NCBI GenBank assembly: GCA_019192545.1
Contig: JAHCMI010000052.1
Location: 1-64,000, forward strand
DNA from: Rivularia sp. MS3
Lineage (GTDB): Bacteria; Cyanobacteriota; Cyanobacteriia; Cyanobacteriales; Nostocaceae
Direction: 5' to 3'
Length of the DNA: 64,000 nt
The translations under genes were made by a program, and so were the position numbers. Every line of letters starts with the position of its first letter. Positions within the stretch are counted from its first letter, which is position 1. The notes below the pieces were generated by a model. That model did not search any database. It was not told the origin of the DNA and worked only from the letters and a program-made list of their open reading frames with translations. Positions 25,539 through 56,745 of the stretch are shown here, piece by piece.

Positions 25539-26633
25539 CTATATTTTGATATCAGCCAACGGATTAGTTCCTAATGCGACTTTTCCCCAACGCATCACAT
25601 TAGCTGCCGCAACACCTGCTCCACCCATGCCATAAATTAATACCAAATCGTTTTCTTTTATTTTTTCAAGTTGGGCAGCATAGTAAAGATTAGCTACAGT
25701 CAAAACTGGGCCACAATTACCATAATGAGGATAAAGATTAATTGTTTGCTCGGGATTAATATCTAAAACCCGTGCTGCGAAGTTAGCAAACCAGGCAGAA
25801 AGGGTATGAAAAATAAAAAAATCTATCTGGTCAAGCCTTACTCCAGCAACCTCACAAGCTCCTTTGCAACAAGTTTTAAGAAATTCTTCGGCTAATGTAT
25901 TGGCAAGCTTATTAGCATCATTTGATATTTGTATATGCACTTGTGGGTTACCATGAGAATTATTAACTGGTCGAGCAGAAACAACATCCATTATTCCTGT
26001 ATGTATAACCTTAGTACCAAGAACACCTTGTGATGGCTCAAGCGAACTAACTAAAAATGCACCTGCGGCATCGCTCGTAAACCAAGACATAGTATCTGCT
26101 TCATCGAAGAAATGAGCATAAGTACAAGAAACAACTACCAAAACCTGATTATATTGTCCGCTTTGTACTAATGCTGATGCCGTTTGTAGTGCAATTGGAG
26201 TACTACCAGTTCCTCCATTGATATTCCATGCTGCTCCTTTCAAACCCAACCGATTAGCAAGAAATGTAGCATTACCTAAAATAATTTGTTCTGGCCATAC
26301 AGACGCTACAAGCATGAGATCGATTTCATCTATAGTAATTTGTGACGCTGCCAATACATCACAAGCTGCTTGATACTCTAAGGTTAATGAAGATTCATCA
26401 GGACTTAAAACCCATCTATTAATAGTCCCTCGAAAAGGGTCTGACAGATAAGGTTGCATTTCTTCTTCAAACACATTTCTCGGTACAGAATTACTAGGTG
26501 ATAAAAATCTTGCTAAACTCTGTTCTTCTATTTTTTCAAATAACTCTGGATATCTTTGTCTATAATAATCATTTGTTCGCCGAATACTTGGAAAACTAAC
26601 TGCCATAGCTCGGATTCCTACAGGTTCGTTCAC
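25539..26633 (-). CDS. KAS III (FabH)-like protein lacking the catalytic Cys
   Basis: The 364-residue protein has the thiolase/KAS III fold: LTLEYQAACDVLAASQITID, DLMLVASVWPEQ, a middle nucleophile loop, YNQVLVVVSCTYAH, and DFFIFHTLSAWFANFAARVL. The active-site His276 and Asn306 (HYGNCGP) are present. At the nucleophile position, where FabH has A-A-C-S-G, this protein reads G-G-T-G-S, so Thr142 replaces Cys. Ordinary decarboxylating condensation through a Cys thioester is therefore unlikely. It may act as an acyltransferase, a non-condensing partner or an evolved enzyme. It lies 57 bp downstream of the ThDP-enzyme gene on the same strand, so the two are probably co-transcribed and used in one pathway, perhaps for a specialised metabolite. 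Confidence 0.85.
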   Translation of the reverse strand: MNEPVGIRAMAVSFPSIRRTNDYYRQRYPELFEKIEEQSLARFLSPSNSVPRNVFEEEMQPYLSDPFRGTINRWVLSPDESSLTLEYQAACDVLAASQITIDEIDLMLVASVWPEQIILGNATFLANRLGLKGAAWNINGGTGSTPIALQTASALVQSGQYNQVLVVVSCTYAHFFDEADTMSWFTSDAAGAFLVSSLEPSQGVLGTKVIHTGIMDVVSARPVNNSHGNPQVHIQISNDANKLANTLAEEFLKTCCKGACEVAGVRLDQIDFFIFHTLSAWFANFAARVLDINPEQTINLYPHYGNCGPVLTVANLYYAAQLEKIKENDLVLIYGMGGAGVAAANVMRWGKVALGTNPLADIKI

Positions 26634-26690
26634 AACTTTAAATTTCCTTTATATTTTTATAGTTAGCTAATAATTTAATTTTCAGTTTAT

Positions 26691-28430
26691 TTAAGAATTT
26701 AAAGTCTCAATACGACTACCAATTGGTGCAATTTGATTTGAATCAACCGAAACATCTATTACAAAAGGTTTATCTGAGTTCATAGCTGTTTCTAGTGCTG
26801 CCTGAATATCAGATTCTTGTTCCACACGCATAAATTCAGCACCCAGGCTGTGGGCTAATTGAGAAAAATCAGTCTGAGGAACTTTTGTATCTACTTCTTG
26901 CAATTTTAATAGTGTCATGCCCTGACTGCACATATTATAAAGCTGGTCATTCAGAACAATCCAAACCGCAGATATATTGTATCTAACGGCAGTGCTGACT
27001 TCATTGTTCATCAACATAGAACCATCTCCGACGATAGCAACAGCTTTACGCATATTTACCATCCCTGCACCTACAACACCTGTAGTGAAATGTCCCATAC
27101 TACCAAACCAAGTACTTACCCGAAAACGTTCTGAGTCGTTGAATTGTAAGTGATTAATAGCCCAAGCAAAAGAATTTCCAGCTCCTGCCATAACAACAGC
27201 ATCACTATTTTCTACAATGTGTTGTTGAATTGCTTGCATAAGAAATTGAGGACGAATCAAACCTTCTGTTTTTGGTGCGATCGCCTTGCGTTTAGGAGTT
27301 GGTAAATCTATATTTGACAACTGTTTTGGATGCTCTGGAAAATATTTTAGGATAGCTCTAACAAAAGCTTCTATGTCAGATTGAATACCAACAGTTTCAG
27401 CTTCAGGGTAGGCAATTCCTGGTACTTTTGGGTCAATATCAACATGAATAAAGCCACGAGAAGGAACCATTACAGGATTATAAAATGAGGTGGCTTCACC
27501 TAAACGACTTCCTAAAACCAACGTGCGTAGAGGGCGATATTCTTGCATATATTGTAAAACAGACTCATGCCCTGCAAAGCCTGTAACCCCAACAAATTGA
27601 GGATGATTTTCGGGAAAGATACCTTTGCCACGAGGGGAACACATTACTGCTGCACCGGTTTTCTCAGCTAGTTGGCGAATTGCTGCTGCTGCTTTCCTTG
27701 CTCCAAAACCAACCCAAATAGCAAAGGGAGCCTCAGATAATAATTTGGCACATTCTGCTACAGTCTGCTCGCTTGCTGTAGCTAAAGACTGGGATAAAAA
27801 AGTTTGTGACAACGGATTTTCAGTTAAACTGCTTTGAATTGCACTAGGAATACTAATATGAGCAACAAAACCACCAGGTTGCGTTAAACCTAAAGCTAAT
27901 CTCCGAGCAATCTCTGGAAGCTGGTCGCTATTTTCAAGAGTGGTTGCATAATCAAATATAGTTCCTGTAGTAAATATGTCTGCATAGGGCATGGTATTAG
28001 CTCCAGTTTCTTGTACTGCCCAACGCCCGCGTTGTGCGGTTGAGGTCATGCCCGATAACAAAATCACCTTTGCACCTTCCCAGCGAGCAGCCATCAATCC
28101 TGTCAAGGCATTGGTAATACCCGGTCCTGTGGTGGTAAATACCACGGTGGGACAGTCATTAGCAAAATAAGCTTCTGTGGCAGCAAAGGCGGCACCTGAT
28201 TCGTGACGGCAGTGAATTACTTCAATCGAACTTTGTTGCAAGCTGTGCCATAAACGAGCGATCGCACCTCCAGAAACCCCAAAAGCATGTTTAATTCCTT
28301 GTTTTTCGAGTATTCTGACTATTGCTTCGGCAACTGATACAGACTTAGCAGACAAATTTTCCGCGTTTTTATCATCTGAAGCATTGTCTAAACCTTCAGA
28401 ATAGTTAGATGGATTAAATATTCCTGTCAT
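26691..28430 (-). CDS. ThDP-dependent enzyme, acetolactate synthase-like
   Basis: The 579-residue protein has the three-domain layout of the acetolactate synthase / benzoylformate decarboxylase superfamily. The N-terminal Pyr domain (about 30-200) carries the catalytic Glu77 in CRHESGAAFAA. A central domain spans about 220-370. The C-terminal PP domain has the ThDP-binding motif GDGSMLMNNE and the downstream NDQLYNM. The first 30 residues are a polar extension. There is no regulatory subunit gene and no ilv gene nearby, so a housekeeping role in branched-chain amino acid synthesis is unlikely. Paired with the KAS III-like gene, it could perform acyloin-type carboligation or 2-oxoacid decarboxylation for a specialised product. 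ScyA of scytonemin synthesis is another member of this superfamily, but no other scytonemin genes are present. Confidence 0.88.
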   Translation of the reverse strand: MTGIFNPSNYSEGLDNASDDKNAENLSAKSVSVAEAIVRILEKQGIKHAFGVSGGAIARLWHSLQQSSIEVIHCRHESGAAFAATEAYFANDCPTVVFTTTGPGITNALTGLMAARWEGAKVILLSGMTSTAQRGRWAVQETGANTMPYADIFTTGTIFDYATTLENSDQLPEIARRLALGLTQPGGFVAHISIPSAIQSSLTENPLSQTFLSQSLATASEQTVAECAKLLSEAPFAIWVGFGARKAAAAIRQLAEKTGAAVMCSPRGKGIFPENHPQFVGVTGFAGHESVLQYMQEYRPLRTLVLGSRLGEATSFYNPVMVPSRGFIHVDIDPKVPGIAYPEAETVGIQSDIEAFVRAILKYFPEHPKQLSNIDLPTPKRKAIAPKTEGLIRPQFLMQAIQQHIVENSDAVVMAGAGNSFAWAINHLQFNDSERFRVSTWFGSMGHFTTGVVGAGMVNMRKAVAIVGDGSMLMNNEVSTAVRYNISAVWIVLNDQLYNMCSQGMTLLKLQEVDTKVPQTDFSQLAHSLGAEFMRVEQESDIQAALETAMNSDKPFVIDVSVDSNQIAPIGSRIETLNS

Positions 28431-33536: not shown

Positions 33537-34499
33537 TATTTTCTCCTTTTTACGAGTGTGGATGCTATTTCTACACCCCGAACAATGCCTTCATTAATTT
33601 TTTGAGTTTCTAAGTTTTTGAATTAATGATGGTCGTATAAATACTCTTCAGCTTTCTACTACAAAATTATTATTTGGATTACAGATTAATATTTCACGTG
33701 AATTCAAACACCAGAACAAAGTTACTCTTGAAAAAGCCGGATGAAAGTAATTATTTTCACCCTTTTCCCTTTGCCTTATGCCCCCTGCATTCTTATAAAC
33801 CAATAAATTCGTAGTTTTATTCAGTTTTTCCCTATGTTATGCAATATGATTCTTGATAGCTCTTTATACCCATGATAGTTAAATTATTTCTTAATGAATT
33901 AACTAGAAGACATTTTAAGATTAAAATTTCATTAACTAAAATTATGTGTTTTTAATTATGAGAAACCAATGAATAAATTATTTATGAATCAAGCAGCAAT
34001 TGCCGCTGTAAAGAGTAGGGGAAGAAAACTATTTTAAGTCAAAAAAACCCCATCGAAATAAACTTTAAAATTTGGGTTGAATTCCCCATCGTCACACGGT
34101 GAAAGAATTGGGTTGGGATAACAGCCCCTTCCCAATTCCAGCCTTCTTCCTTCTTCGGCTCAAACCTTCTTCCTTCGTTTTAATGTGATGGGTTCCCTGC
34201 CGACTGCCTAAAAACGACTATCTCAATAGCATACTAAGTACTGAAGATGCCCAGTTGGCTTGGCGCACCAGGCTGCCTAAGTCCTATGAAGTTTTATAAA
34301 TATTTTGATGATGATCGAAAGGGGAGGAGAGGGGAGATATTAATTTTCGGCTTTAAAAAACTAGCTCTGAGACTTACGATATAAAACTTTCTAGAAAAAT
34401 CTCTATGATTACCCTAAATAAAAATTTATTTAAAAAATGTTACAAAGTTTAGTAAAATGACCTTAATAATAAAATAAGTATTTCTTACTATTGATAATC
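33537..34499. other. Intergenic region upstream of peroxidase and ndhD
   Basis: No gene in 0.96 kb. It must contain the divergent promoters of the peroxidase and ndhD genes. It carries short repeats: an inverted copy (34198-34247) of the sequence at 10539-10608, and a run of CCTTCTTCCTTCTTCGGCTC-type repeats near 34140-34175. Confidence 0.55.
34198..34247. repeat. Inverted copy of the TATGCTATT-GTCGTTTTTAGG repeat
   Basis: CTGCCTAAAAACGACTATCT then CAATAGCATACTAAGTACTG is the reverse complement, with few changes, of positions about 10545-10606. It shows a dispersed repeat of roughly 50-60 bp. Confidence 0.7.
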
Positions 34500-36182
34500 A
34501 TGGCGGAACATTTTCCTTGGCTAACCGCGATAGTTTTATTTCCACTTATTGCTTCAGCATTCATTCCATTGATACCGAGTAAAAGTGGTAATCGCGTCAG
34601 ATGGTATGCCACCGGGGTGGGGATGGCAGATTTTGTATTAATGTGTGTCGCCTTTTGGCGGAATTACGATGCAAGTAGTGCAAGTTTTCAACTAGCGGAA
34701 AGTTATGCTTGGGTGCCTCAGTTAGGTTTTAACTGGGCTGTTTCCGTCGATGGTTTATCCGTTCCTTTGGTATTATTGGCTGGTTTTGTAACGACTCTTG
34801 CCATGTTTAGTGCTTGGCAAGTTGACCGCAGGTCGCATTTATTTTACTTTCTGATGCTGGTGCTGTATTCGGCACAGATTGGGGTATTTGTGGCTCAGGA
34901 TTTAATGTTGTTCTTTATTATGTGGGAAGTTGAATTAGTTCCCGTATATTTACTGATTAACATTTGGGGTGGTAAAAACCGACGTTATGCAGCAACCAAG
35001 TTCATACTCTACACCGCAGCCGCTTCGATATTTATTTTAGTCGCTGGGATAGCAATGGCTTTGTATGGCGGCGATAATGTAACTTTTGATATTGCGGCTT
35101 TGGCAACGAAGGATTATTCGTTAGGCTTCGAGTTGCTGTTATATGCGGGATTATTAATAGCATTCGGCGTTAAGTTAGCAATTTTCCCTTTACATACATG
35201 GTTGCCAGATGCCCACGGTGAAGCTAGCACTCCGGTATCGATGATTTTGGCTGGTGTATTGTTGAAAATGGGTAGTTACGGATTAATTCGACTCAATTTA
35301 GAATTACTTACCGAAGCACACATTTACTTTGCACCAGTTTTAGCCACCTTGGGAGTAATTAATATAATTTACGGTGCTTTAAATTCTTTTGCTCAAACTC
35401 ATATGAAACGACGTTTGGCTTATTCGTCAGTTTCTCACATGGGATTTGTACTTTTAGGAATCGCTTCGTTTACAGATTTGGGAATCAACGGCGCAATGTT
35501 ACAGATGATTTCCCACGGTTTGATTGCCTCGGTATTATTCTTCTTGGCTGGGGTAACTTACGATAGAACTCATACCATGAAAATGGATGATATGGGTGGA
35601 ATTGGTAAAGTAATGCCTAAAGTATTCGCTTTATGTACGATGGCAGCAATGGCTTCTTTAGCGCTTCCAGGCATGAGCGGATTTATTAGCGAGCTTTCGG
35701 TGTTAGTTGGCGTAACCACAAGCGATATTTACAGTTCAACTTTCTGTACCGTAACGGTTTTCCTAGCTTCAGTAGGGATTATCTTAACTCCGATTTATTT
35801 ACTTGATTTATTGAAACAGGTATTTTACGGAGAAGGAAAAGTTGTTTGCGACATTGGCAATAAGAAATACGAAAATTTAGAAGCAGAAGGAACAGCTTGT
35901 TTCGGTACCGATTGCGTTTTACCGGGTGAATCAATTTACAGAGATGCAAGCGCTCGGGAAGTTTTTATAGCAGCTTGTTTCTTGGTGTTAATTATCGGAA
36001 TTGGCTTTTATCCTAAAGCTGCAATGGGGATATATGATGCCAAGACAGTAGCTGTGAATGCTCAAGTTAGGGAATCTTATACCCGAATAGCTGAAAGCAA
36101 TCCCGGTGTTTACGCAAGAGGAAATGCGACACCTAAAATTGCTAAAGCTGAAGTTGTTCCGGTTTTGGGGACAGTGAAGTAG
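34500..36182 (+). CDS. ndhD: NAD(P)H-quinone oxidoreductase (NDH-1) subunit 4
   Basis: I take the ATG at 34500 ([16 protein letters not shown]), since the TTG at 34491 only adds three residues. The 560-residue protein has about 14 transmembrane helices and the antiporter-like core of complex I subunits: [20 protein letters not shown] with the conserved membrane Glu, [20 protein letters not shown] with the conserved Lys, and [14 protein letters not shown]. It translocates protons in thylakoid NDH-1. The C-terminal loop ([19 protein letters not shown]) and the general sequence suggest a respiratory/cyclic NdhD1/D2 type rather than the CO2-uptake NdhD3/D4 type. No ndhF partner is next to it, so it stands alone. 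An intrinsic terminator follows. Confidence 0.95.
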
Positions 36183-36220
36183 TGATTCGGTAGTACGGGA
36201 AAATTGAATAAATAATTTAG

Positions 36221-36252
36221 AGACGTTGTGTAATGCAGCGTCTTTGTTTTTT
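36221..36252 (+). terminator. Intrinsic terminator of ndhD
   Basis: AGACGTTG and CAGCGTCT form an 8-bp stem with one G-T pair and a 7-base loop, followed by TTGTTTTTT. It begins 38 bp after the ndhD stop codon. Confidence 0.75.
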
Positions 36253-36418
36253 GGTTGTAACTCCAATCGTTTTTTAGGAAGATTATTAGTAAAAAATAAC
36301 CGCAGAGACGCAGAGAGCGCAGAGGAAACAGATAAAGAGAAATAGGTGATAGTAACGTAGAGATGTTACAGCACAACGTCTTCATGTAAATCACGTCTGA
36401 GGTGAATTAATATACAAG

Positions 36419-36481
36419 GGTGTGTTACGGCACAAGAAATGTAGTTGAAAGTCGATCTGTTTGAAAATGCCGTAACGCACC
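36419..36481. repeat. Palindromic element with GGTGTGTTACGGCA ends
   Basis: GGTGTGTTACGGCA at 36419-36432 and TGCCGTAACGCACC at 36468-36481 are inverted repeats with one mismatch around a 35-bp middle. A related sequence, GGTGTGTTACGACTTTAGTC then TAACGCACC, occurs at about 29533-29561. Confidence 0.7.
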
Positions 36482-36875
36482 ATTATGTGTAAAAAATTAT
36501 GTTTAATATACAATAATTGGTTAAAAAATAAGTGATTTGCAAGATATACAGCAGTTTGCAGTTAAATAAGGTACATAACTATATTCTAAAACTCTTGTGA
36601 GATGGAGAGAAGTTGCAGCGCGGAGGTTCCCACAGTACGAGCAAACTAAGTCGCACCTCAATAATTATTACCCTGGTTTATGGCATTTTTTGCTGCCTTG
36701 ATATCTATAACCATGTGGGTCTAAATTCATGCAATACTACGTTATATCTATCATGCCAATTATAAATGTCTTGTTCTACATATTCCTAAGATAATACTAC
36801 TTGGTTATGAGTCCAGGATTATTCTAATTGGACAGTACATCTTTCTTCTACAATATAGTTGTGGAGTGAATTTTT

Positions 36876-37805
36876 ATGAAGCCTACTAATAACGGTTCTG
36901 ATATCATTATCGAAGAACAAAATAGTTTCGCGCAGGCTACAGCTTCAGCAAGTGCTGCTAGTTTTCTGGAACAATTATTCGACAACCAAACAGTTGATCT
37001 GCCTCTAAGTGCTAGTGCTGATGCAATAGCAAGCGCCTCTACCACAACTATTGGTTTGTATAATTCAACACCTATAAAAACCGCTAATGGGGCAGATGTT
37101 ATTAAAGGGATTGGCAAAGCTGAAAGTATTGCCAGAGCCATAGCTTCAGCCAAAGTGGAGGCAATAATTGAAGCTATTAACAACTCTAATATTGATGTTA
37201 GTGCTGCTGCTACTGCATTTGCTAAAGCAGTTGCCAACGCCACTGCTGTAGGCATTGATAGCTCAAGCACTATCTCTACAGGTAATGCAAAGGATATTGT
37301 TGTTGGAGAAGCAACTGCCATTGGCATAGCAGAAGCTATTGCAGAAGCCTCAGCAAATATTTCATCCATTAACGATGAGTCTAGTACTGTGAAACTTGAT
37401 ACCTTCGCCGAGGCACTAGGAACTGCTGTAGTCAATGCAGAAGCCATTGGTATCAGGGGAGGCAAATACGACTTAGGAAATGGTAGTGACATAATCAGAG
37501 CCAGTGCCACGGGTGTTGGTCTCAATATGGGTGTAAAAGACGTTTTGATCGATGGTGGAAGAGGCAGTGATACATTCGATCTTCAGAGTGGCACGGGTGA
37601 AGTAATTGGCGGAAAAGGAAATGACCTGCTCGTTTTAGAGGGCAGCATGACTGATTACACTTTTACTACTTTAGATTTGAAGCTTGGGGTTAATATCCAA
37701 GATAGTAACAACAACACCGATCTATTCGTCAGTGGGGTTGAGGAATTTAAATTTGTTGCGGACTCTGACATCACTTATAAATACGCCGACTTGGTATTTA
37801 CCTAA
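36876..37805 (+). CDS. Ala-rich repeat protein with RTX-like C-terminus
   Basis: The 309-residue acidic protein is built from about three degenerate repeats. Each pairs a glycine/aspartate turn (TANGADVIKGIG; STGNAKDIVVGE; LGNGSDIIRASA) with an alanine-rich amphipathic stretch (IARAIASAKVEAIIEA; IAEAIAEASANI). The C-terminal 80 residues, with IDGGRGSDTFDLQSGTG and VIGGKGNDLLVLEG and then YTFTT, resemble RTX calcium-binding repeats and the cyanobacterial 'GKGNDLL...Y.F' ending. There is no signal peptide, so type I secretion is possible. I do not recognise the Ala-rich part as a named family. It has its own ATG with a purine-rich GTGGAG upstream and stands alone. Base composition is more GC-rich than its surroundings, as expected for Ala-rich coding DNA. 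Confidence 0.8.
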   Translation: MKPTNNGSDIIIEEQNSFAQATASASAASFLEQLFDNQTVDLPLSASADAIASASTTTIGLYNSTPIKTANGADVIKGIGKAESIARAIASAKVEAIIEAINNSNIDVSAAATAFAKAVANATAVGIDSSSTISTGNAKDIVVGEATAIGIAEAIAEASANISSINDESSTVKLDTFAEALGTAVVNAEAIGIRGGKYDLGNGSDIIRASATGVGLNMGVKDVLIDGGRGSDTFDLQSGTGEVIGGKGNDLLVLEGSMTDYTFTTLDLKLGVNIQDSNNNTDLFVSGVEEFKFVADSDITYKYADLVFT

Positions 37806-37878
37806 CTGCGATTTAGCCATCATATTGCTGGGATTAGTTCAGTTTTAATTCATTTTTTAAGGTTTCATTTCGTGACAT

Positions 37879-37923
37879 AATCCCACGGTTCCACTTCGTT
37901 TATGTCGTCTCAACCGTGGGATT
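37879..37923. repeat. Hairpin with 12-bp perfect arms
   Basis: AATCCCACGGTT and AACCGTGGGATT pair perfectly around a 21-base loop, 74 bp after the stop of the Ala-rich gene. No T-run follows, so it is at best a weak terminator on its own. Confidence 0.7.
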
Positions 37924-38634
37924 CTGGGGTAAAACAGAAATTGCAGTCTGAGACTGTCTTACATTTCATAACCTAAAATACAGTTGCTGCCGGGAGCAAT
38001 ATTCTCTCCCCTTGTCTGAACAGATCGATTTGTTAACTGAACCGTATTGTTTCATAACCCAGCGGGTACCAAAAAGTTTTTCTATAGCTGCGATCGCGAA
38101 TCAAAATCGCCGCTATGGAAAGATTAGAAAAAAGGTTTAAAGCTGATGTCACAAGAGTTACCGCAGACAAGAAAGTCCAAAACTTACCAACAACTTTGAT
38201 ACTTTTATAACTTGAATAAATATAAATTATCACATAATACTTGATTAAAAGTGCAAAGTAGCATAATATTATCCGCCTTTTAGCTGTTATTTAACCTTAT
38301 TGTTAAGGCATATATTCTTTCTTTAAAAAATATTAGGAATTGAATGAATAATTTATTTCTTGTCTAGAATTTTGGGGAGGGATTATGTAATTACATCGCA
38401 TGGTCTTTCTGCATCAGAATAATTAAGGGGACATGTTGTACGAGAGTGCGATTAGCCCGACTCGGGAAGAACCTCAAGTAGTCTAGAGCTAATCTTCCGC
38501 AACCTGTTACCGATAAGTTGATAGTTTTGATAGGTTCGGTTCCCATTTAGAAGTATTTCCTACAGCAGCAGGCTGCGTACAGTCTGGTAGTTATACCTGT
38601 CAACAGTTAACATCTGATAATCAATTTTATTATT

Positions 38635-38639
38635 AGGAG
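38635..38639 (+). promoter_or_regulatory. Strong ribosome binding site of the RiPP precursor
   Basis: AGGAG six bases before the ATG at 38646. This is the best-placed site in this region, in keeping with a precursor needed in high amounts. Confidence 0.75.
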
Positions 38640-38645
38640 AAAATA

Positions 38646-39068
38646 ATGTCTTTGCAAAATGTCAAAGCTTTTTACAAAAGACTAGCGACTGATGAAGCTT
38701 TACGTACTCAATTGCAAGCAGTAGGAAGTAAAGATGAATGTAGCCAAATTGTTAGAAATGCTGGCTATGATTTCACTTCTCAAGAATTTGAAGAATATAC
38801 GGCTCAGTTGTTAGAGTCAAATTCTGATAACGGCGAAATAACCGACTTAGACGGGGTAACCGACTTAAATGAAAAAGAACTAGACGCTGTTTTTGGTGGA
38901 GCTTCGTCAATTGTTGGTAAGCCTATTATACGTCCTCTGTATGGGGTTGTTGAATATCCGTGGCCAAGACCACAGCCAATGTATGGAATAGTTGTGAGAG
39001 ACGACTTACCAAAGCTTGACAAAAGAGAAGATAACAGAAAACCATCAAGGAAAGCCGACTTATTTTAA
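38646..39068 (+). CDS. Nif11-type RiPP precursor with two XYG splice motifs
   Basis: The 140-residue protein has a Nif11-like leader (residues 1-85): MSLQNVKAFYKRLATDEALR, then GYDFTSQEFEEY, ending in the acidic stretch NEKELDAVFGG. The double glycine at 84-85 is the expected leader cleavage point. The 55-residue core contains two related blocks, PLYGVV (97-102) and PMYGIVV (111-117), each with an X-Y-G triplet at 98-100 and 112-114. In Pleurocapsa-type precursors of this leader class (PlpA, PcpA), a radical SAM 'splicease' removes tyramine from such X-Y-G sites to leave an alpha-keto-beta-amino acid. The remaining core is rich in Pro and charged residues. A radical SAM gene follows on the same strand. 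No dedicated peptidase or ABC transporter is adjacent. Confidence 0.88.
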   Translation: MSLQNVKAFYKRLATDEALRTQLQAVGSKDECSQIVRNAGYDFTSQEFEEYTAQLLESNSDNGEITDLDGVTDLNEKELDAVFGGASSIVGKPIIRPLYGVVEYPWPRPQPMYGIVVRDDLPKLDKREDNRKPSRKADLF

Positions 39069-39668
39069 GGGTAAGATGGGCAAAAAGCACTTTGCCAGTG
39101 CCTATATCTTTTCCTTTTTCAAGGAATCTATTAAAGATATCAAAACAGCAACGAGTGCAAGTGCATTCCAAATGTCAACTCAAATAAACTGAGATTTCAG
39201 GCTCGATTTCTCAGAGGATGTAAGGATGCGCTATAAATGATACTCGAAACTGTTGAGATCCCCCTAAATCCACGCCATTTGCTACAACGGGGGGAACCCC
39301 CCTTCGGGTATCTCCCTTCGGGAGACGCTCCGCGAACGCTAGTTTGGGGGACCCAAACCGACACCCCCAACTAGACTCACCGCAACGCAATGGCTCCCCT
39401 TTAAAAGGGGGACTTTAACCCACGCCACTTGCTACAAGTCGGGGAACCCCTCCGGGTATCTCCCTTCGGGAGACGCTCCGCGAACGCTAGTTTGGGGGAC
39501 CCAAACCGACACCCCCAACTAGACTCACCGCCCAACGCAGTGGCTCCCCTTTATTAAGGGGGGCAGGGGGGATAATCCGAGAATTGCGATAAAAACTATA
39601 CTTTCCAAACATCCTCTCAGTTCACATATATTTCTCCTTTCCTAAATAATTTAGTTGAGTGTGCATTA
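39069..39668. other. Gap between precursor and maturase, mostly a mobile element
   Basis: No gene. After the precursor stop comes a weak hairpin, GCACTTTGCCAGTGC (39087-39101), with a T/C-rich tail that might attenuate transcription. The 411-bp inverted-repeat element (39210-39620) follows, then 48 bp of AT-rich sequence before the radical SAM start. Confidence 0.65.
39210..39620. mobile_element. 411-bp MITE-like element with internal tandem duplication
   Basis: Terminal inverted repeats CTCAGAGGATGT (39210-39221) and ACATCCTCTCAG (39609-39620), one mismatch. Inside, about 140 bp is tandemly duplicated: GGGTATCTCCCTTCGGGAGA and GACGCTCCGCGAACGCTAGT, then the stretch starting TTTGGGGGACCCAAACCGAC, occur in both 39313-39400 and 39450-39530. 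A 156-bp relative in the opposite orientation is at 10021-10176. It has no coding capacity and separates the RiPP precursor from its maturase. Confidence 0.75.
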
Positions 39669-40934
39669 ATGAATAAGTATCGCAGGATTAGTTATGCAGT
39701 TTGGGAAATCACTTTAAAGTGTAATTTAGCTTGTCAGCACTGTGGTTCTCGCGCTGGGCATACAAGAGCGAAAGAACTTTCTACGCCGGAAGCCCTTGAT
39801 ATGGTCAAACAGTTGGCAGAAGTCGGGATTACAGAAGTTACTCTGATTGGAGGCGAGGCTTTTCTGCGCCCTGATTGGTTAGAAATTGCTCAAGCGATTA
39901 CTCAAGCCGGAATGGTTTGCGGTATGACTACTGGTGGTTATGGTATCACTCTTGACACCGCACGCCGGATGAAAGAAGCTGGAATTAAAGTGGTTTCTGT
40001 ATCGGTTGATGGCTTAGAAGCTACTCACGACCATCTGCGTGGTAGAGAAGGTTCCTGGCAATGGGCGTTTAAGACTATGAGTCATCTTAAGGAAGCTGGT
40101 ATTCCTTTTGGTTGCAATACTCAAATCAATCGCCTTTCTGCACCGGAATTCCCCTGTATATATGAGCGTATCCGCGATGCTGGTGTTTTTGCATGGCAGA
40201 TTCAGTTAACTGTACCGATGGGGAATGCTGCGGATAATAACGACATTCTGTTGCAACCTTATGAATTACTGGATGTGTATCCAATGATTGCCCGTGTTGC
40301 TCAAAGAGCTTTGCAAGAGGGAGTCCAAGTACAGCCAGGGAATAATATCGGTTACTATGGCCCCTACGAGCGATTGCTACGGGGAGGAGATGCTTGGTCT
40401 TTTTGGCAGGGATGCAACGCTGGATTATCTACTTTGGGGATTGAAGCAGATGGTGCAATTAAAGGTTGTCCCTCATTACCGACTTCAGCCTACACGGGAG
40501 GAAACATCCGCGATTATTCACTGCGGACAATAATTGAAGAAACAGAAGAATTGCGGTTTAATCTCGGCGCTGGTACTCCCAAAGGAAACCAACACTTGTG
40601 GGGTTTCTGCAAGACTTGCGAATTCGCCGAACTCTGTCGTGGTGGTTGTTCTTGGACTGCTCATGTATTCTTTGATAAAAGAGGAAACAATCCTTACTGT
40701 CACCATCGAGCCTTGACTCAAGAAAAGCGCGGTATTCGCGAGCGAGTGTATCTCGAACATAAGGCAGAGGGGAATCCCTTTGATAATGGCGAGTTTGCTT
40801 TGATTGAAGAACCGATTAATCAACCATTACCAGAGAACGATCCACTTCATTTTACATCTGAGAAGATTCAATGGCCAGATGGTTGGGAGTTTGAAGAGGA
40901 ATCAGTCGCATCTTTAGTAAGTTCGGTTGGTTAA
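39669..40934 (+). CDS. Radical SAM/SPASM RiPP maturase, splicease type
   Basis: The 421-residue protein has the radical SAM cluster motif C18-N-L-A-C22-Q-H-C25 (CxxxCxxC) near the N-terminus, the glycine motif IGGEAFLRPDW and VSVDGLEATHDHLRG. The C-terminal SPASM region (about 255-360) carries further cysteines for auxiliary clusters: WQGCNAGLSTLGIEADGAIK, G-C-P-S, FCKTCEFAELCRGGCSW and NPYCHHRAL. It belongs to the Nif11-peptide-associated maturases. With a precursor bearing X-Y-G sites upstream, I infer that it is a splicease of the PlpX/PcpX kind, cutting out tyramine. It is cytoplasmic and needs SAM and iron-sulfur clusters. The precursor lies 600 bp upstream, across a mobile element, and a small accessory-like gene lies 138 bp downstream. 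Confidence 0.88.
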   Translation: MNKYRRISYAVWEITLKCNLACQHCGSRAGHTRAKELSTPEALDMVKQLAEVGITEVTLIGGEAFLRPDWLEIAQAITQAGMVCGMTTGGYGITLDTARRMKEAGIKVVSVSVDGLEATHDHLRGREGSWQWAFKTMSHLKEAGIPFGCNTQINRLSAPEFPCIYERIRDAGVFAWQIQLTVPMGNAADNNDILLQPYELLDVYPMIARVAQRALQEGVQVQPGNNIGYYGPYERLLRGGDAWSFWQGCNAGLSTLGIEADGAIKGCPSLPTSAYTGGNIRDYSLRTIIEETEELRFNLGAGTPKGNQHLWGFCKTCEFAELCRGGCSWTAHVFFDKRGNNPYCHHRALTQEKRGIRERVYLEHKAEGNPFDNGEFALIEEPINQPLPENDPLHFTSEKIQWPDGWEFEEESVASLVSSVG

Positions 40935-41072
40935 CTCCCGTCTTTACAGAATTTCAAACCTTCACCAACCTTCGGATTTGAGGATTTGTTTTAATGTGCC
41001 AGTTGCATTGGGAGCAAGGCATTTTAATAGATACAAACCTTTAACCTTTGACCTTTAACCTCTAACCTTATT

Positions 41073-41249
41073 ATGTCTACAGAAAATGATTTAGTGTCAT
41101 CCGTTGATGATTCCCAGACAACGCTTTTACCTCGCACTGCTTGGAATAGTCAGGTTGCTTATTTGCGAGTTCTTTTTCGAGCTAAGAAGGCTTTGGATCG
41201 AATCGAGAAGGAAACAAACCCCCAACTTGAAGCAAGAGATAAATCTTAG
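41073..41249 (+). CDS. Small ORF, candidate splicease accessory protein (58 residues)
   Basis: ATG at 41073 to TAG at 41249. The product begins MSTENDLVSSVDDSQTTLLP and continues with WNSQVAYLRVLFRAKKALDR, an amphipathic helix, then a charged end. Known splicease loci (plp, pcp) encode a small protein (PlpY/PcpY) needed with the radical SAM enzyme. This ORF has the right place, strand and small size, but I cannot confirm homology from memory. There is no clear Shine-Dalgarno sequence. Overlapping longer frames in other registers look like noise. Confidence 0.55.
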   Translation: MSTENDLVSSVDDSQTTLLPRTAWNSQVAYLRVLFRAKKALDRIEKETNPQLEARDKS

Positions 41250-41493
41250 ATGGGGTTGTATAAATTCTGTTTCTAAAATCTTGAATTGAAGTATAGCCAT
41301 CAGTATTTCCCACTTAACACTTTGTCGTTGATACTACGGGTGTGTTGGGACTGGTAGCTATCTTTTTTTATGGTTGAATTTAATTCGCGAGATTGTCTGG
41401 CGAATCAGTTTTTTTGTCCAAAGTCCAATATTTTATCTGGTAGTATTTAATTCATATTGACTTTAAATATAAATTAGAAGCAATAGATAAAAT

Positions 41494-42726
41494 ATGGGTG
41501 TAAATCAACAAGCCGTTAGTTCAATCAAGTCAAATATATGGAAGCTTTATATATTAAAAGGATTAGAGTTTGCTTGGTTTCCCATTCCTGTAATTATTCT
41601 TTTTTATGAAAATAATGGTTTATCGTTTGAGCAATCTTTACTTTTAAAGACGATTTTATCGTTATCAGTATTTATATTTGAAATACCTTCTGGTTATTTT
41701 GCGGATATTTTTGGTAGAAAGGCTTGTTTAGTTTTAGGGGGATTAGTTTGGATAATAGGATTGCTATTTTACTGCTTTCAAAATAGTTTTTTCGCATTTG
41801 CGATCGCGGAAGTTTTATCGGGTTTGGCTGCTAGTCTTATATCTGGTGCAAATACGGCTTTGGGATTCGATAGTTTAGTCAAAATTAACCAAGAGCAAGA
41901 TTACCGTCATATAGAAGGAAGACTAGGAGCTATAGCGGGAATTGCGGAAGCAATCTGTGGTTTGTTAGGGGGTTTAGTAGCTGCTCGCAATTTGGTTTAT
42001 CCTTTCTATTTACAAACGATTTGTATATTGTTGTATTTCCTAATTGCTTTAACTTTAGTTGAACCAAATTTACATCAATCTTCAACTAATTCTTCTCAAG
42101 CCGGGAATAATAAAAGTACTAGACAAGCAATAAACCATCGGGAAATATGGGAAGCAATCCGTTTATCGTTGTTAGTAAACAAAAAAGTGAGATGGTTAAT
42201 TTTATTTTCAGCAAACTTTGGAATTATAACCTTTCTTGCCGTTTGGTTATCTCAAGCGGATATGCAAAGTCGTGGTTTAGCAGTTTCTAGTTTTGGATAT
42301 GCTTGGGCTGCATTTCATTTTATACTCAGCTTTGCTTCTTTTAAGGCAACATCAATAGAAAATATCTTTGGTACAAAAAAGGTATTGTTGGGTTTAGTTA
42401 TATCATTAGGTTTATCTTATATATTTCTGAGCTTGATAAACCAAACATGGGGAATTATATTTATTGCCTTAATTTATTTTAGTCGAGGGGTTCGCAATCC
42501 ATTAACATTGAATCTGATAAACCAAAATCTCCCCTCATCAATTAGAGCTACAGCGCTTTCTATAAGTAGCTTTATTTTTCGCTTAGGTTTTGTTGCGATC
42601 GCGCCAGTGGTTGGGTGGATAACAGATACCTATAACCTAGATATAGCTTTATTTTTAGTTGGTGTTATTTTTATTATTTTTGGAGTCTTTTGCTGGCAAA
42701 AGTTGGTGGAAGCAGAAGTTTTTTAA
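41494..42726 (+). CDS. MFS transporter
   Basis: The 410-residue protein has about 12 transmembrane helices. It carries the MFS loop motif GYFADIFGRKACLVLGG between helices 2 and 3, and SRGVRNPLTLNLINQNLPSS in the second half. It is about 12 helices without extra domains, so a simple secondary carrier. It lies 244 bp after the small ORF in the RiPP locus on the same strand. It could export the mature peptide, as MFS carriers do in some RiPP clusters, but the link rests only on position. It is not related in detail to the MFS-FHA protein at 11324. A convergent M48 gene follows. Confidence 0.85.
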   Translation: MGVNQQAVSSIKSNIWKLYILKGLEFAWFPIPVIILFYENNGLSFEQSLLLKTILSLSVFIFEIPSGYFADIFGRKACLVLGGLVWIIGLLFYCFQNSFFAFAIAEVLSGLAASLISGANTALGFDSLVKINQEQDYRHIEGRLGAIAGIAEAICGLLGGLVAARNLVYPFYLQTICILLYFLIALTLVEPNLHQSSTNSSQAGNNKSTRQAINHREIWEAIRLSLLVNKKVRWLILFSANFGIITFLAVWLSQADMQSRGLAVSSFGYAWAAFHFILSFASFKATSIENIFGTKKVLLGLVISLGLSYIFLSLINQTWGIIFIALIYFSRGVRNPLTLNLINQNLPSSIRATALSISSFIFRLGFVAIAPVVGWITDTYNLDIALFLVGVIFIIFGVFCWQKLVEAEVF

Positions 42727-42796
42727 ATAATGATGTCAGATTTTACCTAACATCATTATTTAAGTATATTTTCTCAATTTATGTTTATTTCAACTA

Positions 42797-53340: not shown

Positions 53341-53955
53341 TTACCCAACAGCTACCTTTTGTTTCTTTTCTAATTCTTGCAAAAATACCTGCATAAATTC
53401 TTCGACGACACCGGGATGTCTACCAGAAATTAAGTTACCATCAATATGAGTTGCTGCGGTTTCTTCACCTTCGTAAACAATAGTTGCTCCAGCATTTTCA
53501 ACATCACAAAGAATGTTGTGAGCGCAGGTAACTTTACGACCTTTGAGAAGTTCTTTATCAGCACAAAATAACCACATACTATGACAAATAGTGCCAATTT
53601 TTAAATTGCCAGCATCCATTGCTTTAACAGCTTTACGTAAAAAGTTTACCGCTGGTGCTTGATTGGGCTGTCCTGCTTTTACTGATGGCTGGAAACGCAA
53701 TCTATCCATTGCATAACCACCAATTAAAATAATGCCTTTATAATCCGCTAAATTAACATTATTAACTTCTACGCTAACTGTAGCTTCTGCTTGATGGTCG
53801 TTGCCATTAAACTTCAGACTTTCTTGATTCCACAGATGAGACATATAGTCTACTTCATACCCATTTTCGGGAAAGAATTCCTTGAAGCGAAAATATTCGG
53901 TTTCGTCGAAATGTTCTTCAATTAAAACGCCAATTTTTCCTTTATTTGTAGCCAT
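53341..53955 (-). CDS. DJ-1/PfpI family protein, Slr1854-like
   Basis: The 204-residue protein has the DJ-1/PfpI fold: KIGVLIEEHFDETEYFRFKE, GIILIGGYAMDRLRF, and the nucleophile elbow IGTICHSMWLF with Cys124. It ends NLISGRHPGVVEEFMQVFLQ as in PfpI-type members. These proteins act as deglycases, chaperones or hydrolases, and which applies cannot be read here. It lies 152 bp upstream of the epimerase gene, the same neighbour as in Synechocystis. Confidence 0.9.
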   Translation of the reverse strand: MATNKGKIGVLIEEHFDETEYFRFKEFFPENGYEVDYMSHLWNQESLKFNGNDHQAEATVSVEVNNVNLADYKGIILIGGYAMDRLRFQPSVKAGQPNQAPAVNFLRKAVKAMDAGNLKIGTICHSMWLFCADKELLKGRKVTCAHNILCDVENAGATIVYEGEETAATHIDGNLISGRHPGVVEEFMQVFLQELEKKQKVAVG

Positions 53956-54030
53956 GATTATTTCCTTGTTGATAGTTAACCTTAAAACTTTTCTTTTCCT
54001 TGTTAAGGGAAAACCTCACCCCTGCCCCTC

Positions 54031-54198
54031 TCCTTAACAAGGATACTGTTGGCGAATAGTAGGTCAGACCCCTCATCCCAACGAATTAATAGGGATTTTA
54101 AGTTATCAGCAGGAGTGCGATCGCACTCCTCAAACCCTCATTTTTTTGGTTATTCAGGGGTGTCACCCCTGAATAACCAGCAGTATCCTTAACAAGGA
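54031..54198. mobile_element. 142-bp MITE-like insertion with 13-bp target duplication
   Basis: TCCTTAACAAGGA occurs at 54031-54043 and again at 54186-54198. Between them (54044-54185) is a 142-bp element with ends TACTGTTGG and CCAGCAGTA (9-bp inverted repeats, one mismatch). Inside are two perfect palindromes: AGGAGTGCGATCGCACTCCT (54111-54130) and GGTTATTCAGGGGTG paired with CACCCCTGAATAACC (54148-54178). The direct repeat looks like a target-site duplication made by insertion into a CTCTCCTTAACAAGGAGAG hairpin. Confidence 0.75.
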
Positions 54199-54209
54199 GA
54201 GGGGTAATA

Positions 54210-54575
54210 TTATTCAGCGGGACCGAGAATTTCATTTAACATGCCAAAACAACCGGCAGCTTTATTAAAACCAGCATAAACGCACATAAATAAAAGCAAT
54301 TCTTCGATTTCTTCGCGGGTAGCTCCCTGCTGCATTGCCATATTTACATGGGCACCGAAGGGATTTCCTGCTCCTGTTTGGTCTTGGTTGGCAACATCAA
54401 CGGCTATAGTAATTAAAGCTTTGGTTTTTTGGTCGATTAAAGGTAAACCCCAAGCTTCTCCAGCAACACGGGTACAAAAGTCACCAAATTTCGGATTAAT
54501 ACTGCTCAAACCCGCTTGCAATTCTTTATCATCTAAAACGGCATTTTTGTAATTCTTTGTTTCCATTGTTCCCAT
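54210..54575 (-). CDS. Carboxymuconolactone decarboxylase-like protein, Slr1853-like
   Basis: The 121-residue helical protein has the CMD fold: FGDFCTRVAGEAWGLPLIDQ, then KTKALITIAVDVANQ, GAHVNMAMQQGATREEIEEL, LLFMCVYAGFNKAAGCFGML. The C-x-x-C pair of AhpD-type members is absent, so a peroxidase role is unlikely. The decarboxylase reaction itself is not assured either. It is 5 bp after the SnoaL-like gene on the same strand, clearly an operon, and corresponds to slr1853 of the Synechocystis icfG group. Confidence 0.88.
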   Translation of the reverse strand: MGTMETKNYKNAVLDDKELQAGLSSINPKFGDFCTRVAGEAWGLPLIDQKTKALITIAVDVANQDQTGAGNPFGAHVNMAMQQGATREEIEELLLFMCVYAGFNKAAGCFGMLNEILGPAE

Positions 54576-54580
54576 AATAA

Positions 54581-55150
54581 TTACGCAGTTTTGATTAATT
54601 TCAATAGTTCATTTGGCGCAAAAACATCGCGGTAAAATGTCAATTGTTCTGTTTTCAAATAACAACCTCCTCGATGTCCGCGACGAACCCAAGTGACGTT
54701 TCCTTTAGCTATTGTTTCGTTGGTTTCATCATCTACACACTTCCATTCAAAAAAGGTATGTTCGCCGAAAAACATTACAATTGGCCATACCATTGTTACT
54801 CCCGGCTGTGCAATCAAAGCCCACCAATGTTGCTCTCTATCTTTTTGCTGTTCTAATCCTTGATAGGGGCCATCCTGGCAAAAATAAACCAAATCATCCC
54901 GGTATTCATCTGTTAAGATATCTCCTCTTCCCTGTCTCAAAGCTTCGCAATGAGTCGGCCACCATTCTTTATTTTCTTTTTCTATTTGTTGCAGCGTATA
55001 TGATGAATTAATTTCTGGTAATGTATCTTCTTTCTTAGAAATAATTTCTTCTGCCTGCTGAATTAATTTTTGTTTAAAATCCTTAGAAATTAATCCAGGT
55101 CTGGAATAGTCTGCGGATAATTCTTTATAATAGTTAATTCTTTTGGGCAT
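54581..55150 (-). CDS. SnoaL/NTF2-like protein, Slr1852-like
   Basis: The 189-residue protein has an N-terminal helical segment (1-60) and a SnoaL-like cone-shaped domain: NKEWWPTHCEALRQGRGDIL, then YRDDLVYFCQDGPYQGLEQQ, a middle HWWALIAQPGVTMV and the strand GNVTWVRRGHRGGCYLKTEQ. Such folds serve as polyketide cyclases, dehydratases or binding proteins; no specific catalytic set is clear here. It is the first gene of the cluster that continues through the CMD-like, DJ-1 and epimerase genes, matching the gene order slr1852 to slr1855 in Synechocystis. Confidence 0.8.
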   Translation of the reverse strand: MPKRINYYKELSADYSRPGLISKDFKQKLIQQAEEIISKKEDTLPEINSSYTLQQIEKENKEWWPTHCEALRQGRGDILTDEYRDDLVYFCQDGPYQGLEQQKDREQHWWALIAQPGVTMVWPIVMFFGEHTFFEWKCVDDETNETIAKGNVTWVRRGHRGGCYLKTEQLTFYRDVFAPNELLKLIKTA

Positions 55151-55354
55151 GGAAAATAACCTCCTGTATATTCATGAAGCTATACAAATAGTCTTGATGA
55201 CTATATTTATGTTGGTAAAAAACTCTAATACTGATAGGAGAAAACTATGGCTTTGTGGTTTTTAAGTCTTCAATCTTTTTCAATTTAAACCCGATATCAG
55301 ATTTGTATCAATGGAAAAAATATAGATATGGTGGAAGATTGTTGCGATATTTTT

Positions 55355-55411
55355 GTTCGTAGTTGCGCTTTAGCGCATCCGGGTAAGAGGCGCTAAAGCG
55401 CAACTACGAAC
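55355..55411. repeat. Perfect 22-bp-arm hairpin after the tyrosinase gene
   Basis: GTTCGTAGTTGCGCTTTAGC plus GC (55355-55376) is exactly mirrored at 55390-55411, with a 13-base loop. It starts 2 bp after the tyrosinase stop codon. No T-run follows on the minus strand, so it may stabilise or stop the transcript by structure alone. Half-related sequences (GTTCGTAGTTGCGCTTAAGC) occur near 2889, 7152 and 28556. Confidence 0.85.
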
Positions 55412-55413
55412 GA

Positions 55414-56745
55414 TTAAGATTTTGGCTTTAGTAATGCTTTTTCGCTACGGAGACGAGTTGTATCGTAGGTATACCCTAATTTACGAAAATCCAGCAGGTC
55501 TGCGGCAGTAATAATCCTATTAGTTTTAGGTAACATTGCCACTAAATCCGTATCGTTGAGATTTCCTGGTGTGGATTTGCCACCATCCCAAGGCCAAATT
55601 GGGTCTTTGAGATTATAGCCATAATCCATCCTTTTGGTGGGATAGAATTTTTCACCTGTATGTCCGTTGTCTTGCCACTGCGCCCATAAACGGTCTACGT
55701 TGGAATGAGTTAACCAAAAAGTAGGGTCGTAAGGGGAACTAAGGATACTCATCATTGTTCCTAGATTCCGAGCTTGGTTGGTGGGGAGGGCTGTTTTATC
55801 ATAATCTTTCAAAACCACTCCTCCAATCATTGCATGAGAAACAACATGAACGGCCCAATCTTCAATTATTTTGCTGTTCTCATCTAATCCAGTACCTCCT
55901 CCCTCTAACACTAAAGAGAAAATTTCATAGTCATCGAGATTCATCATGCGGTCGATGACTTCTTTAGGCATGGGATATTTATCGAAGGGAGGAATTCGCA
56001 AAAAGCGAATAATTTTTGGCCCTAATGATGTAAAGTTAATCGGTTCTATATGAATATCTTCATTCACAGTCCAGTCAGCGAAAGGCCCGGATTTAACTGG
56101 CCCTCCTTTAAAGGTTCCGACTCCGGGTATATCAACTGTTACGCCTTCACCATTCCCCCCCATAAAGTCATTGCTAAGCATGACATCCAAAGCTTTGGGA
56201 TCTGTCCAATCCCAGTACGGAATAGTAACGCTCGGATCTACCTTTTGCAAAGCATTTTCCAGGTCATCTAGCAACTGTCTATGCCAAGGTAAAAATGCCG
56301 GATGTCCGGGATGGGCGGGATTATAACCTGCTGCTGGTCCTTTCGATTTAAAGGGTTTCTCAAATCCAGCAACCATAACGTGCTGTAGAACAAGTTTGTC
56401 AAAAATACTGAGTTTACTTCCTTGGGGAATGGTATTTTTAACTTTTTTGAGAGCGTTAATGAATGCAGCTTTTTCTTCGGATGTTAAGTCTACAATACTT
56501 TTACGTACTGAAAGGTTCGCGTCTGATTTAGCCTCGGGATAGACTGGTGCCGGAAGAGAAGCCTTTGGCATAGGGGTCATTTCATAAGAAACACCATTAC
56601 GCATGGTTCCGGGTTGCGATATAGTCTTGGTATTTTTGGTGGAATTGCTCCATTGCGAACCGAACACAATTACTGTAGCTGTAATTGCCAGTATGAGGAC
56701 AAAGGCTAGAAGCGAAAATTTTTTGGTTTTTGTTAGATTTTGCAC
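55414..56745 (-). CDS. Tyrosinase-family type-3 copper protein
   Basis: The 443-residue protein begins with a signal or anchor helix (residues 10-28), so it is exported or membrane-bound on the periplasmic side. The CuA site is formed by His122, His145 or His148, and His155 in HPGHPAFLPWHRQLL. PYWDWTDP follows. The CuB site is His300 and His304 in WAVHVVSHAMIGG and His347 in SSPYDPTFWLTHSNVDRLWA. Tyrosinases oxidise phenols to quinones using dioxygen. It lies upstream of the SnoaL-like gene on the same strand, but 263 bp and a strong hairpin separate them, so it is probably its own unit. Confidence 0.93.
   Translation of the reverse strand: MQNLTKTKKFSLLAFVLILAITATVIVFGSQWSNSTKNTKTISQPGTMRNGVSYEMTPMPKASLPAPVYPEAKSDANLSVRKSIVDLTSEEKAAFINALKKVKNTIPQGSKLSIFDKLVLQHVMVAGFEKPFKSKGPAAGYNPAHPGHPAFLPWHRQLLDDLENALQKVDPSVTIPYWDWTDPKALDVMLSNDFMGGNGEGVTVDIPGVGTFKGGPVKSGPFADWTVNEDIHIEPINFTSLGPKIIRFLRIPPFDKYPMPKEVIDRMMNLDDYEIFSLVLEGGGTGLDENSKIIEDWAVHVVSHAMIGGVVLKDYDKTALPTNQARNLGTMMSILSSPYDPTFWLTHSNVDRLWAQWQDNGHTGEKFYPTKRMDYGYNLKDPIWPWDGGKSTPGNLNDTDLVAMLPKTNRIITAADLLDFRKLGYTYDTTRLRSEKALLKPKS

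What the first reader, a model, noticed from the sequence alone, without database searches (positions are those of the whole stretch)
38646..41249. Splicease-type RiPP locus with two XYG sites in one core
The Nif11-type precursor has a GG leader end (84-85) and two related core blocks, PLYGVV and PMYGIVV, each with the X-Y-G triplet that splicease enzymes act on. A radical SAM/SPASM maturase and a small ORF follow on the same strand. From the known Pleurocapsa plp/pcp systems, the product should carry two alpha-keto-beta-amino acid residues, one derived from Leu and one from Met, 14 residues apart. The rest of the core (Pro- and Trp-containing, then a charged C-terminal tail) is unlike a typical hydrophobic RiPP, so the final product and its trimming are open questions.
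Basis: partly seen in the sequence, partly recalled or inferred. Interest (0 to 1): 0.85.

Follow-up and report, generated by a model that had tools for sequence, protein, structure and literature searches.

The report
Ordinary two-site splicease peptide cassette
This is a genuine cyanobacterial gene set for a peptide whose backbone is probably cut and rejoined at two tyrosine sites; it is a new member of a known family in which two sites are the commonest arrangement.

Summary
The Nif11-leader precursor (38646-39068, GG at residues 84-85) carries LYG and MYG sites, followed by a radical SAM/SPASM maturase (39669-40934) and a small ORF (41073-41249). The maturase scores 845 bits on TIGR04103 (cut-off 725), is 77% identical to the maturase of the Pleurocapsa plp locus (PlpX; locus recognised here by its splice-tag sequences) and groups with it in a tree. 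The small ORF is the PlpY equivalent; a homologue lies downstream of the maturase in 79 of 79 fetched named loci.

Two sites are ordinary: of 128 precursor homologues, 61 have two YG sites, 49 one, 8 three, 2 four and 8 none. The Pro/Trp spacer is typical. The charged tail is a C-terminal extension; the nearest relative stops 16 codons earlier.

The cassette lies in a 5.1-kb stretch absent at the same place in a genus sibling, and the downstream MFS gene occurs without it. No C39-peptidase exporter was found on the contig.

Across relatives YG is kept while X changes more than its immediate neighbours, which fits, but does not prove, a ketoamide protease inhibitor with X as variable P1 residue. 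New member of a known kind; splicing itself is inferred.

The parts
38646..39068 (+). Nif11-leader splicease precursor, 140 aa; leader 1-85 ending GG, core 86-140
   Evidence: (TIGR03798 55.4 bits)
38937..38945 (+). first XYG site, Leu98-Tyr99-Gly100, context IIRPLYGVV
   Evidence: sequence
38979..38987 (+). second XYG site, Met112-Tyr113-Gly114, context PQPMYGIVV
   Evidence: sequence
39018..39065 (+). 16-residue C-terminal extension DKREDNRKPSRKADLF, absent from the nearest relative
39267..39562 (.). two tandem copies (about 148 bp, 91% identical) of a repeat with further matches in the genome; separates precursor and maturase
   Evidence: not in L035
39669..40934 (+). PlpX-type radical SAM/SPASM splicease, 421 aa
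41073..41249 (+). PlpY-type partner, 58 aa, LPRxxW...AYLR...KAKKALD motif
36328..41470 (.). approximate extent of the variable stretch holding the cassette; replaced by 34 bp in the syntenic genus sibling G006

Best explanation
A PlpXY-type splicease cassette. The precursor is made with a Nif11 leader. The radical SAM/SPASM enzyme, with its small PlpY partner, acts at both X-Tyr-Gly sites (Leu98 and Met112), excises a tyramine equivalent (C8H9NO) from each tyrosine and rejoins the backbone, leaving two alpha-keto-beta-amino acid (ketoamide) residues. The leader is then cut after Gly85, most likely by a C39-peptidase ABC exporter encoded elsewhere in the genome. The product most likely acts as an electrophilic peptide with two ketoamide warheads, probably a protease inhibitor. 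Family membership, gene set and retention of both sites are shown here; excision at each site, trimming and inhibitory function are inferred.
For: TIGR04103 845 bits. 77% identity to the plp maturase; that locus was recognised by cores PLFPIRPLYGLPI and AVAAMYGVVFP, which match splice tags printed in PMC10533398. Same clade as PlpX, 98/91. Of 13 Cys, 12 are conserved: 8 in all 81 rows, C18/C22/C25 in 79 with 2 gaps, C149 in 79. PlpY homologue downstream in 79 of 79 named loci. [quoted passage not shown] YG retained at 49 of 59 sites in 30 pairs (first sites 26 of 30, later sites 23 of 29) against 617 of 1104 other core residues. Maturase dN 0.032, dS 0.329 against L035. C39 peptidase domain: 12 matches in the genome, none on the window contig C122.
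Against: No chemistry can be shown by sequence. One site might be spliced and the other not; most tag placements tried in FtsZ were not accepted by PlpXY (table). Sites can be lost: 4 of 30 first and 6 of 29 later sites are not retained in the partner. Core divergence from L035 is near neutral (dN 0.33, dS 0.24, 38 codons). The 601-bp precursor-maturase gap with repeats (4th largest of 73, median 113) could uncouple expression. No exporter is linked. The protease-inhibitor role has no direct evidence here.
Confidence: 0.82

Rival explanations
1. The enzyme is a splicease but only one of the two sites is processed in the natural product; the other YG is tolerated or serves recognition.
For: 49 of 128 homologues carry one site, so one site suffices in many members; 8 of 30 pairs differ in site number: (2,1) 5, (3,2) 2, (4,2) 1.
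Against: Both sites have the family context (P-X-Y-G-V/I) and both are kept in L035 although the rest of the core diverged. Later sites are retained nearly as often as first ones, 23 of 29 against 26 of 30.
Confidence: 0.13
2. The cassette is a decaying or recently acquired remnant that makes no product: a separated precursor, an added tail, no linked exporter.
For: Repeats between precursor and maturase, C-terminal extension, a single Nif11 leader found in the genome, and none of the 23 other recurrent neighbour families listed was found near the window cassette.
Against: All three ORFs are intact; maturase dN/dS about 0.10 against L035, leader 0.34; the 12 conserved Cys are present.
Confidence: 0.1
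3. The maturase belongs to a different radical SAM/SPASM family with another reaction, for example the GDL-motif maturases.
For: TIGR03913 also matches, 416.8 bits.
Against: Below the TIGR03913 cut-off (591.75) and far above that of TIGR04103; 77% identical to PlpX; the precursor has YG sites in the splicease context.
Confidence: 0.02

Closest known systems
plp system of Pleurocapsa sp. PCC 7319 (PlpX, PlpY, PlpA2, PlpA3), read here as L126 (name inferred, see report)
   Same: Nif11-type precursors with LYG or MYG, maturase 77% identical, 56-aa PlpY with the same LPR..W..K..L motif
   Different: plp spreads its sites over separate precursors with one YG each; the window has one precursor with two. 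The 485-aa protein beside the plp precursors (the place of epimerase PlpD in PMC11002830) and a C39-ABC-like protein about 7 kb from PlpX (both by eye, no profile run) have no counterpart recognised beside the window cassette
   Same: Maturase 94% identical; two-site core PMYG...PQPMYG; PlpY homologue
   Different: Precursor stops 16 codons earlier, has a Y-to-Y distance of 16 instead of 14, lacks the repeat pair, and has PpiC, HlyD and ABC genes further downstream on the other strand
Nif11-class peptide radical SAM maturase 3 family (TIGR04103)
   Same: Above the family cut-off
   Different: No difference found
GDL-motif radical SAM/SPASM maturases (TIGR03913)
   Same: Same superfamily and partial similarity
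   Different: Below cut-off; the three plasmid-borne relatives so named are 48-49% identical

Membership tests
PlpXY-type splicease (spliceotide) systems | Maturase of the TIGR04103 family above its curated cut-off | tested here: met
   845.3 against 725 bits
PlpXY-type splicease (spliceotide) systems | Maturase groups with characterised PlpX and apart from other SPASM maturases | tested here: met
   77% identity; 80-row clade with PlpX 98/91, with paralogues L129-L131 and two distant radical SAM proteins outside; one fetched family member, L110, also falls outside it. PcpX was not located
PlpXY-type splicease (spliceotide) systems | Radical SAM CX3CX2C and SPASM-region cysteines | tested here: met
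   C18, C22, C25 (79 of 81 rows, 2 gaps) and C249, C267, C314, C317, C323, C327, C344 (81 of 81); Pfam Radical_SAM and SPASM
PlpXY-type splicease (spliceotide) systems | PlpY partner gene | tested here: met
   58-aa ORF; homologues downstream of the maturase in 79 of 79 named loci; L19 P20 R21 W24 K38 L41 invariant in 38 aligned of the 81 found, PlpY included
PlpXY-type splicease (spliceotide) systems | Precursor with Nif11 or NHLP leader and XYG site(s) | tested here: met
   TIGR03798 and two sites
PlpXY-type splicease (spliceotide) systems | Tyramine excision giving alpha-keto-beta-amino acid residues | not testable with these tools
   needs co-expression and mass spectrometry
PlpXY-type splicease (spliceotide) systems | Co-located radical SAM epimerase (seen in plp; accessory, not defining) | not tested
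   No epimerase profile was run; none was recognised by eye among window ORFs of 150 aa or more
RRE (PqqD-like) domain proteins, for the small ORF | Recognisable RRE profile match or full fold | tested here: not met
   No Pfam or NCBIfam hit at E 0.1; AlphaFold2 gives one confident helix, 27-48, the rest at low confidence, pTM 0.41. PMC11002830 calls PlpY a truncated RRE
GDL-motif maturases (TIGR03913) | Score above cut-off | tested here: not met
   416.8 against 591.75 bits

The most novel reading that the evidence does not exclude
Multi-site spliceotides are multi-headed ketoamide protease inhibitors in which X is the P1 residue, diversified between relatives while the Tyr-Gly signature and the flanking context are kept; the window product, with no linked exporter and a charged tail, is a two-headed inhibitor that may act inside the cell.
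Probability: 0.15. Interest if true: 0.6.

Novelty: new member of a known kind. Interest (0 to 1): 0.27.

Why it matters
It confirms a first-pass reading by direct comparison with the experimentally studied plp locus and settles what seemed odd: multi-site cores are common in the family, up to four sites. It also gives a context rule (QP[LM]YG[VI][VI]) and a measurable pattern (X varies more than its immediate neighbours) that makes a protease-inhibitor role testable.

Tried and rejected
MFS transporter 41494-42726 as the cassette's exporter: rejected. It occurs in 3 of 41 searched genomes, the window's own included. G005 and G006 have it but no TIGR04103 match at E 1e-60; G004 and G007 have TIGR04103 without it. 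In G006 it follows the NADH-dehydrogenase-type gene (window 34491-36182) directly.

Positive selection on the core: the window-L035 core shows dN/dS 1.37 on 38 codons, but 30 pairs, each precursor used once, pool to 0.48 for cores against 0.20 for leaders; core exceeds leader in 23 of 30, of which 3 had undefined core dS and were counted as exceeding. The pairs are homologous, not proven orthologous. So cores evolve faster but not above 1 overall, and the window value is compatible with neutrality.

Small ORF as a full RRE: not supported. A solved splicease structure: none found; best hits SkfB and PqqE. A second precursor in the genome: only one Nif11 leader at E 0.1. Viperin-like PADLOC hits to the maturase are radical SAM superfamily similarity only.

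Literature limits: Morinaka 2018, Lakis 2022 and Scott 2022 were seen only as reference entries; I did not read them. Whether multi-site precursors, X variability or the neighbour genes below are already described there is unknown. Searches were (listings); passages only were read in PMC10533398, PMC11002830, PMC9484694 and PMC9415263.

Full report
What is there. The window encodes, on one strand, a 140-aa precursor with a Nif11 leader (38646-39068), a 421-aa radical SAM/SPASM maturase (39669-40934) and a 58-aa ORF (41073-41249). The leader ends in GG at 84-85 and the 55-residue core has YG at 99-100 and 113-114, giving LYG and MYG sites 14 residues apart. Shuffling the core gives two or more YG in 0.6% of 200,000 trials and two P[LM]YG[VI] in none.

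Maturase identity. It scores 845.3 bits on TIGR04103 (cut-off 725); the nearest other family, TIGR03913, stays under its cut-off. To compare it with an experimentally studied enzyme I searched the family of Hyella patelloides (27 genomes). One of them, G165, holds a locus with precursor cores ending PLFPIRPLYGLPI and, directly after GG, AVAAMYGVVFP. PMC10533398 (passages) prints tags such as PLFPIRPGYGLPI and GAVAAGYGVVFPG, calls its ten-residue tag a minimal PlpA2 core, and uses a PlpA3-M5G mutant; Met is core residue 5 in the second precursor of G165. I therefore take this as the plp locus of Pleurocapsa sp. PCC 7319; that name comes from no record title. Its maturase is 77% identical to the window's over 413 residues. 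In a tree of 86 proteins the window pairs with L035 (99/87) inside an 80-row clade (98/91) that contains PlpX. Outside it lie three sub-cut-off paralogues, two distant radical SAM proteins, and one fetched family member, L110. Twelve of the 13 cysteines are conserved across 81 family rows.

The small ORF. All 79 named loci fetched with the maturase (216 relatives found, best 80 kept, 79 distinct) have a homologue of the 58-aa ORF downstream on the same strand, mostly directly after the maturase. The plp locus has a 56-aa ORF at the same place. The shared part is about 25 residues, LPRxxW...K...L; six residues are invariant in 38 aligned sequences, a selection from the 81 found. PMC11002830 (passages) describes PlpY as a truncated RRE. 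The AlphaFold2 model of the window protein shows one confident helix and little else (mean pLDDT 71, pTM 0.41), which does not look like a complete RRE.

Is two sites special? No. Of 128 Nif11 homologues (phmmer E up to 0.1) found in 74 of the 79 loci plus the window, 61 have two YG sites after the leader, 49 one, 8 three, 2 four and 8 none (duplicates such as L064/L066 and some partial ORFs are included, and the leader end was set by a simple GG rule). X is mostly Leu or Met (92 and 58 of 207 YG contexts), preceded by Pro (133) and, at -3, Gln (135); the residue after the Gly is mostly Val (135). Y-to-Y spacing ranges from 7 to 47, with 14 seen 3 times.

The charged tail. 26 residues follow the last YG, the fifth longest of 122, with the most charges (14); the median length is 8. 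The nearest relative, L035, ends DLRKF-stop where the window reads DLPKL and continues for 16 codons; the DNA after that point aligns only weakly. The simplest reading is an earlier stop lost or moved in the window lineage, or gained in L035's; other relatives mostly end soon after the last site. It is not a family feature.

Genomic setting. In G006, a sibling of the same genus without a TIGR04103 match, window 34401-36327 and 41471-42754 align to blocks only 34 bp apart. So about 5.1 kb (36.3-41.5 kb), with the cassette and an Ala/Ser-rich ORF, is present here and absent there; whether it was gained or lost is not settled. The MFS gene lies outside this stretch. The precursor-maturase gap is 601 bp, 4th largest of 73 loci with an upstream precursor (median 113), and holds two copies of a 148-bp repeat with at least 27 further, mostly partial, matches in the genome (40 of 92 candidates were scored). 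The genome has one Nif11 leader and 12 C39-peptidase matches, one belonging to an NHLM-type exporter above its cut-off, none on the window contig. Leader removal and export are assigned to an unlinked C39 exporter by inference only.

How it evolves. Against L035, dN/dS is about 0.10 for the maturase, 0.34 for the leader and 1.37 for the core (38 codons). In 30 homologous pairs, each precursor used once, pooled dN/dS is 0.20 for leaders and 0.48 for cores. YG is retained at 49 of 59 sites. At retained sites X is identical in 21 of 49, against 146 of 196 for the positions at -3, -2, +2 and +3 (Fisher p = 5e-5; the four flank positions were chosen after seeing the profile, and pairs are not independent in phylogeny). 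Positions further out (-5, -4, +4, +5) vary about as much as X, so X stands out only against its immediate neighbours. A variable residue inside a fixed recognition context is what a P1 position of a protease inhibitor would show, and PMC11002830 says the moiety has been leveraged for protease inhibition; relaxed enzyme specificity at X explains it equally well.

Verdict. A sound prediction of a known kind of system, now compared directly with its closest studied relative. Interest is modest. The chemistry at each site and the biological role remain untested.

Noticed in passing
L036, L038, L039, L040, L044, L047, L048, L049, L050, L054, L055, L059, L061, L064, L066, L071, L073, L078, L081, L090, L097 (flank beside the maturase): 21 of 80 splicease loci (79 named plus the window) carry both an APH-like kinase ORF and a HopA1-domain ORF within about 6 kb, often soon after the PlpY gene (domains confirmed by Pfam for one representative each; loci cut by contig ends make this a lower bound). 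From recall this resembles the dehydration pair of class V lanthipeptides, so hybrid or neighbouring pathways are possible. The window has none; its genome has two HopA1 matches on another contig.
   Followed up: partly
L035:5429-9751, L050:10932-11687, L062:8722-9477 and others: A PpiC-type prolyl isomerase family recurs near splicease loci (cluster of 46 ORFs in 44 of 80 loci, some of them HTH-only ORFs joined by fusion proteins such as L042:8650-9693; Pfam confirmed 4 of the 46), with HlyD (21 loci) and ABC genes (22 loci). Proline isomerisation beside very Pro-rich cores is suggestive.
   Followed up: partly
L050:4469-4909, L035:1143-1592: A roughly 146-aa Cys-containing ORF, without a Pfam match for the one copy scanned, lies upstream of the cassette in 37 of 80 loci.
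   Followed up: no
window 36876-37805: 309-aa Ala/Ser-rich ORF with hemolysin-like GGxGxD repeats near its end (by eye) and no NCBIfam or Pfam match; lies inside the variable stretch.
   Followed up: no
L129:2810-4015, L130 and L131: Paralogous radical SAM/SPASM maturases at 466-482 bits on TIGR04103, under the cut-off, form a separate clade; their precursors were not examined.
   Followed up: no
L031:426-1257: A locus with precursors whose leaders look NHLP-like (by eye) rather than Nif11-like but whose cores still hold a YG site (IYGAAPW, PYGLAPW) beside a TIGR04103 maturase.
   Followed up: no
window 25539-28430 and 53341-56745: A thiamine-diphosphate enzyme beside a KASIII-like protein, and a tyrosinase and a DJ-1/PfpI protein; from recall, some of these types are also seen in scytonemin gene clusters.
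   Followed up: no
PMC10533398: The paper prints the splicing loss as -135.0757 Da for C8H9NO; the formula calculates to 135.0684.
   Followed up: yes
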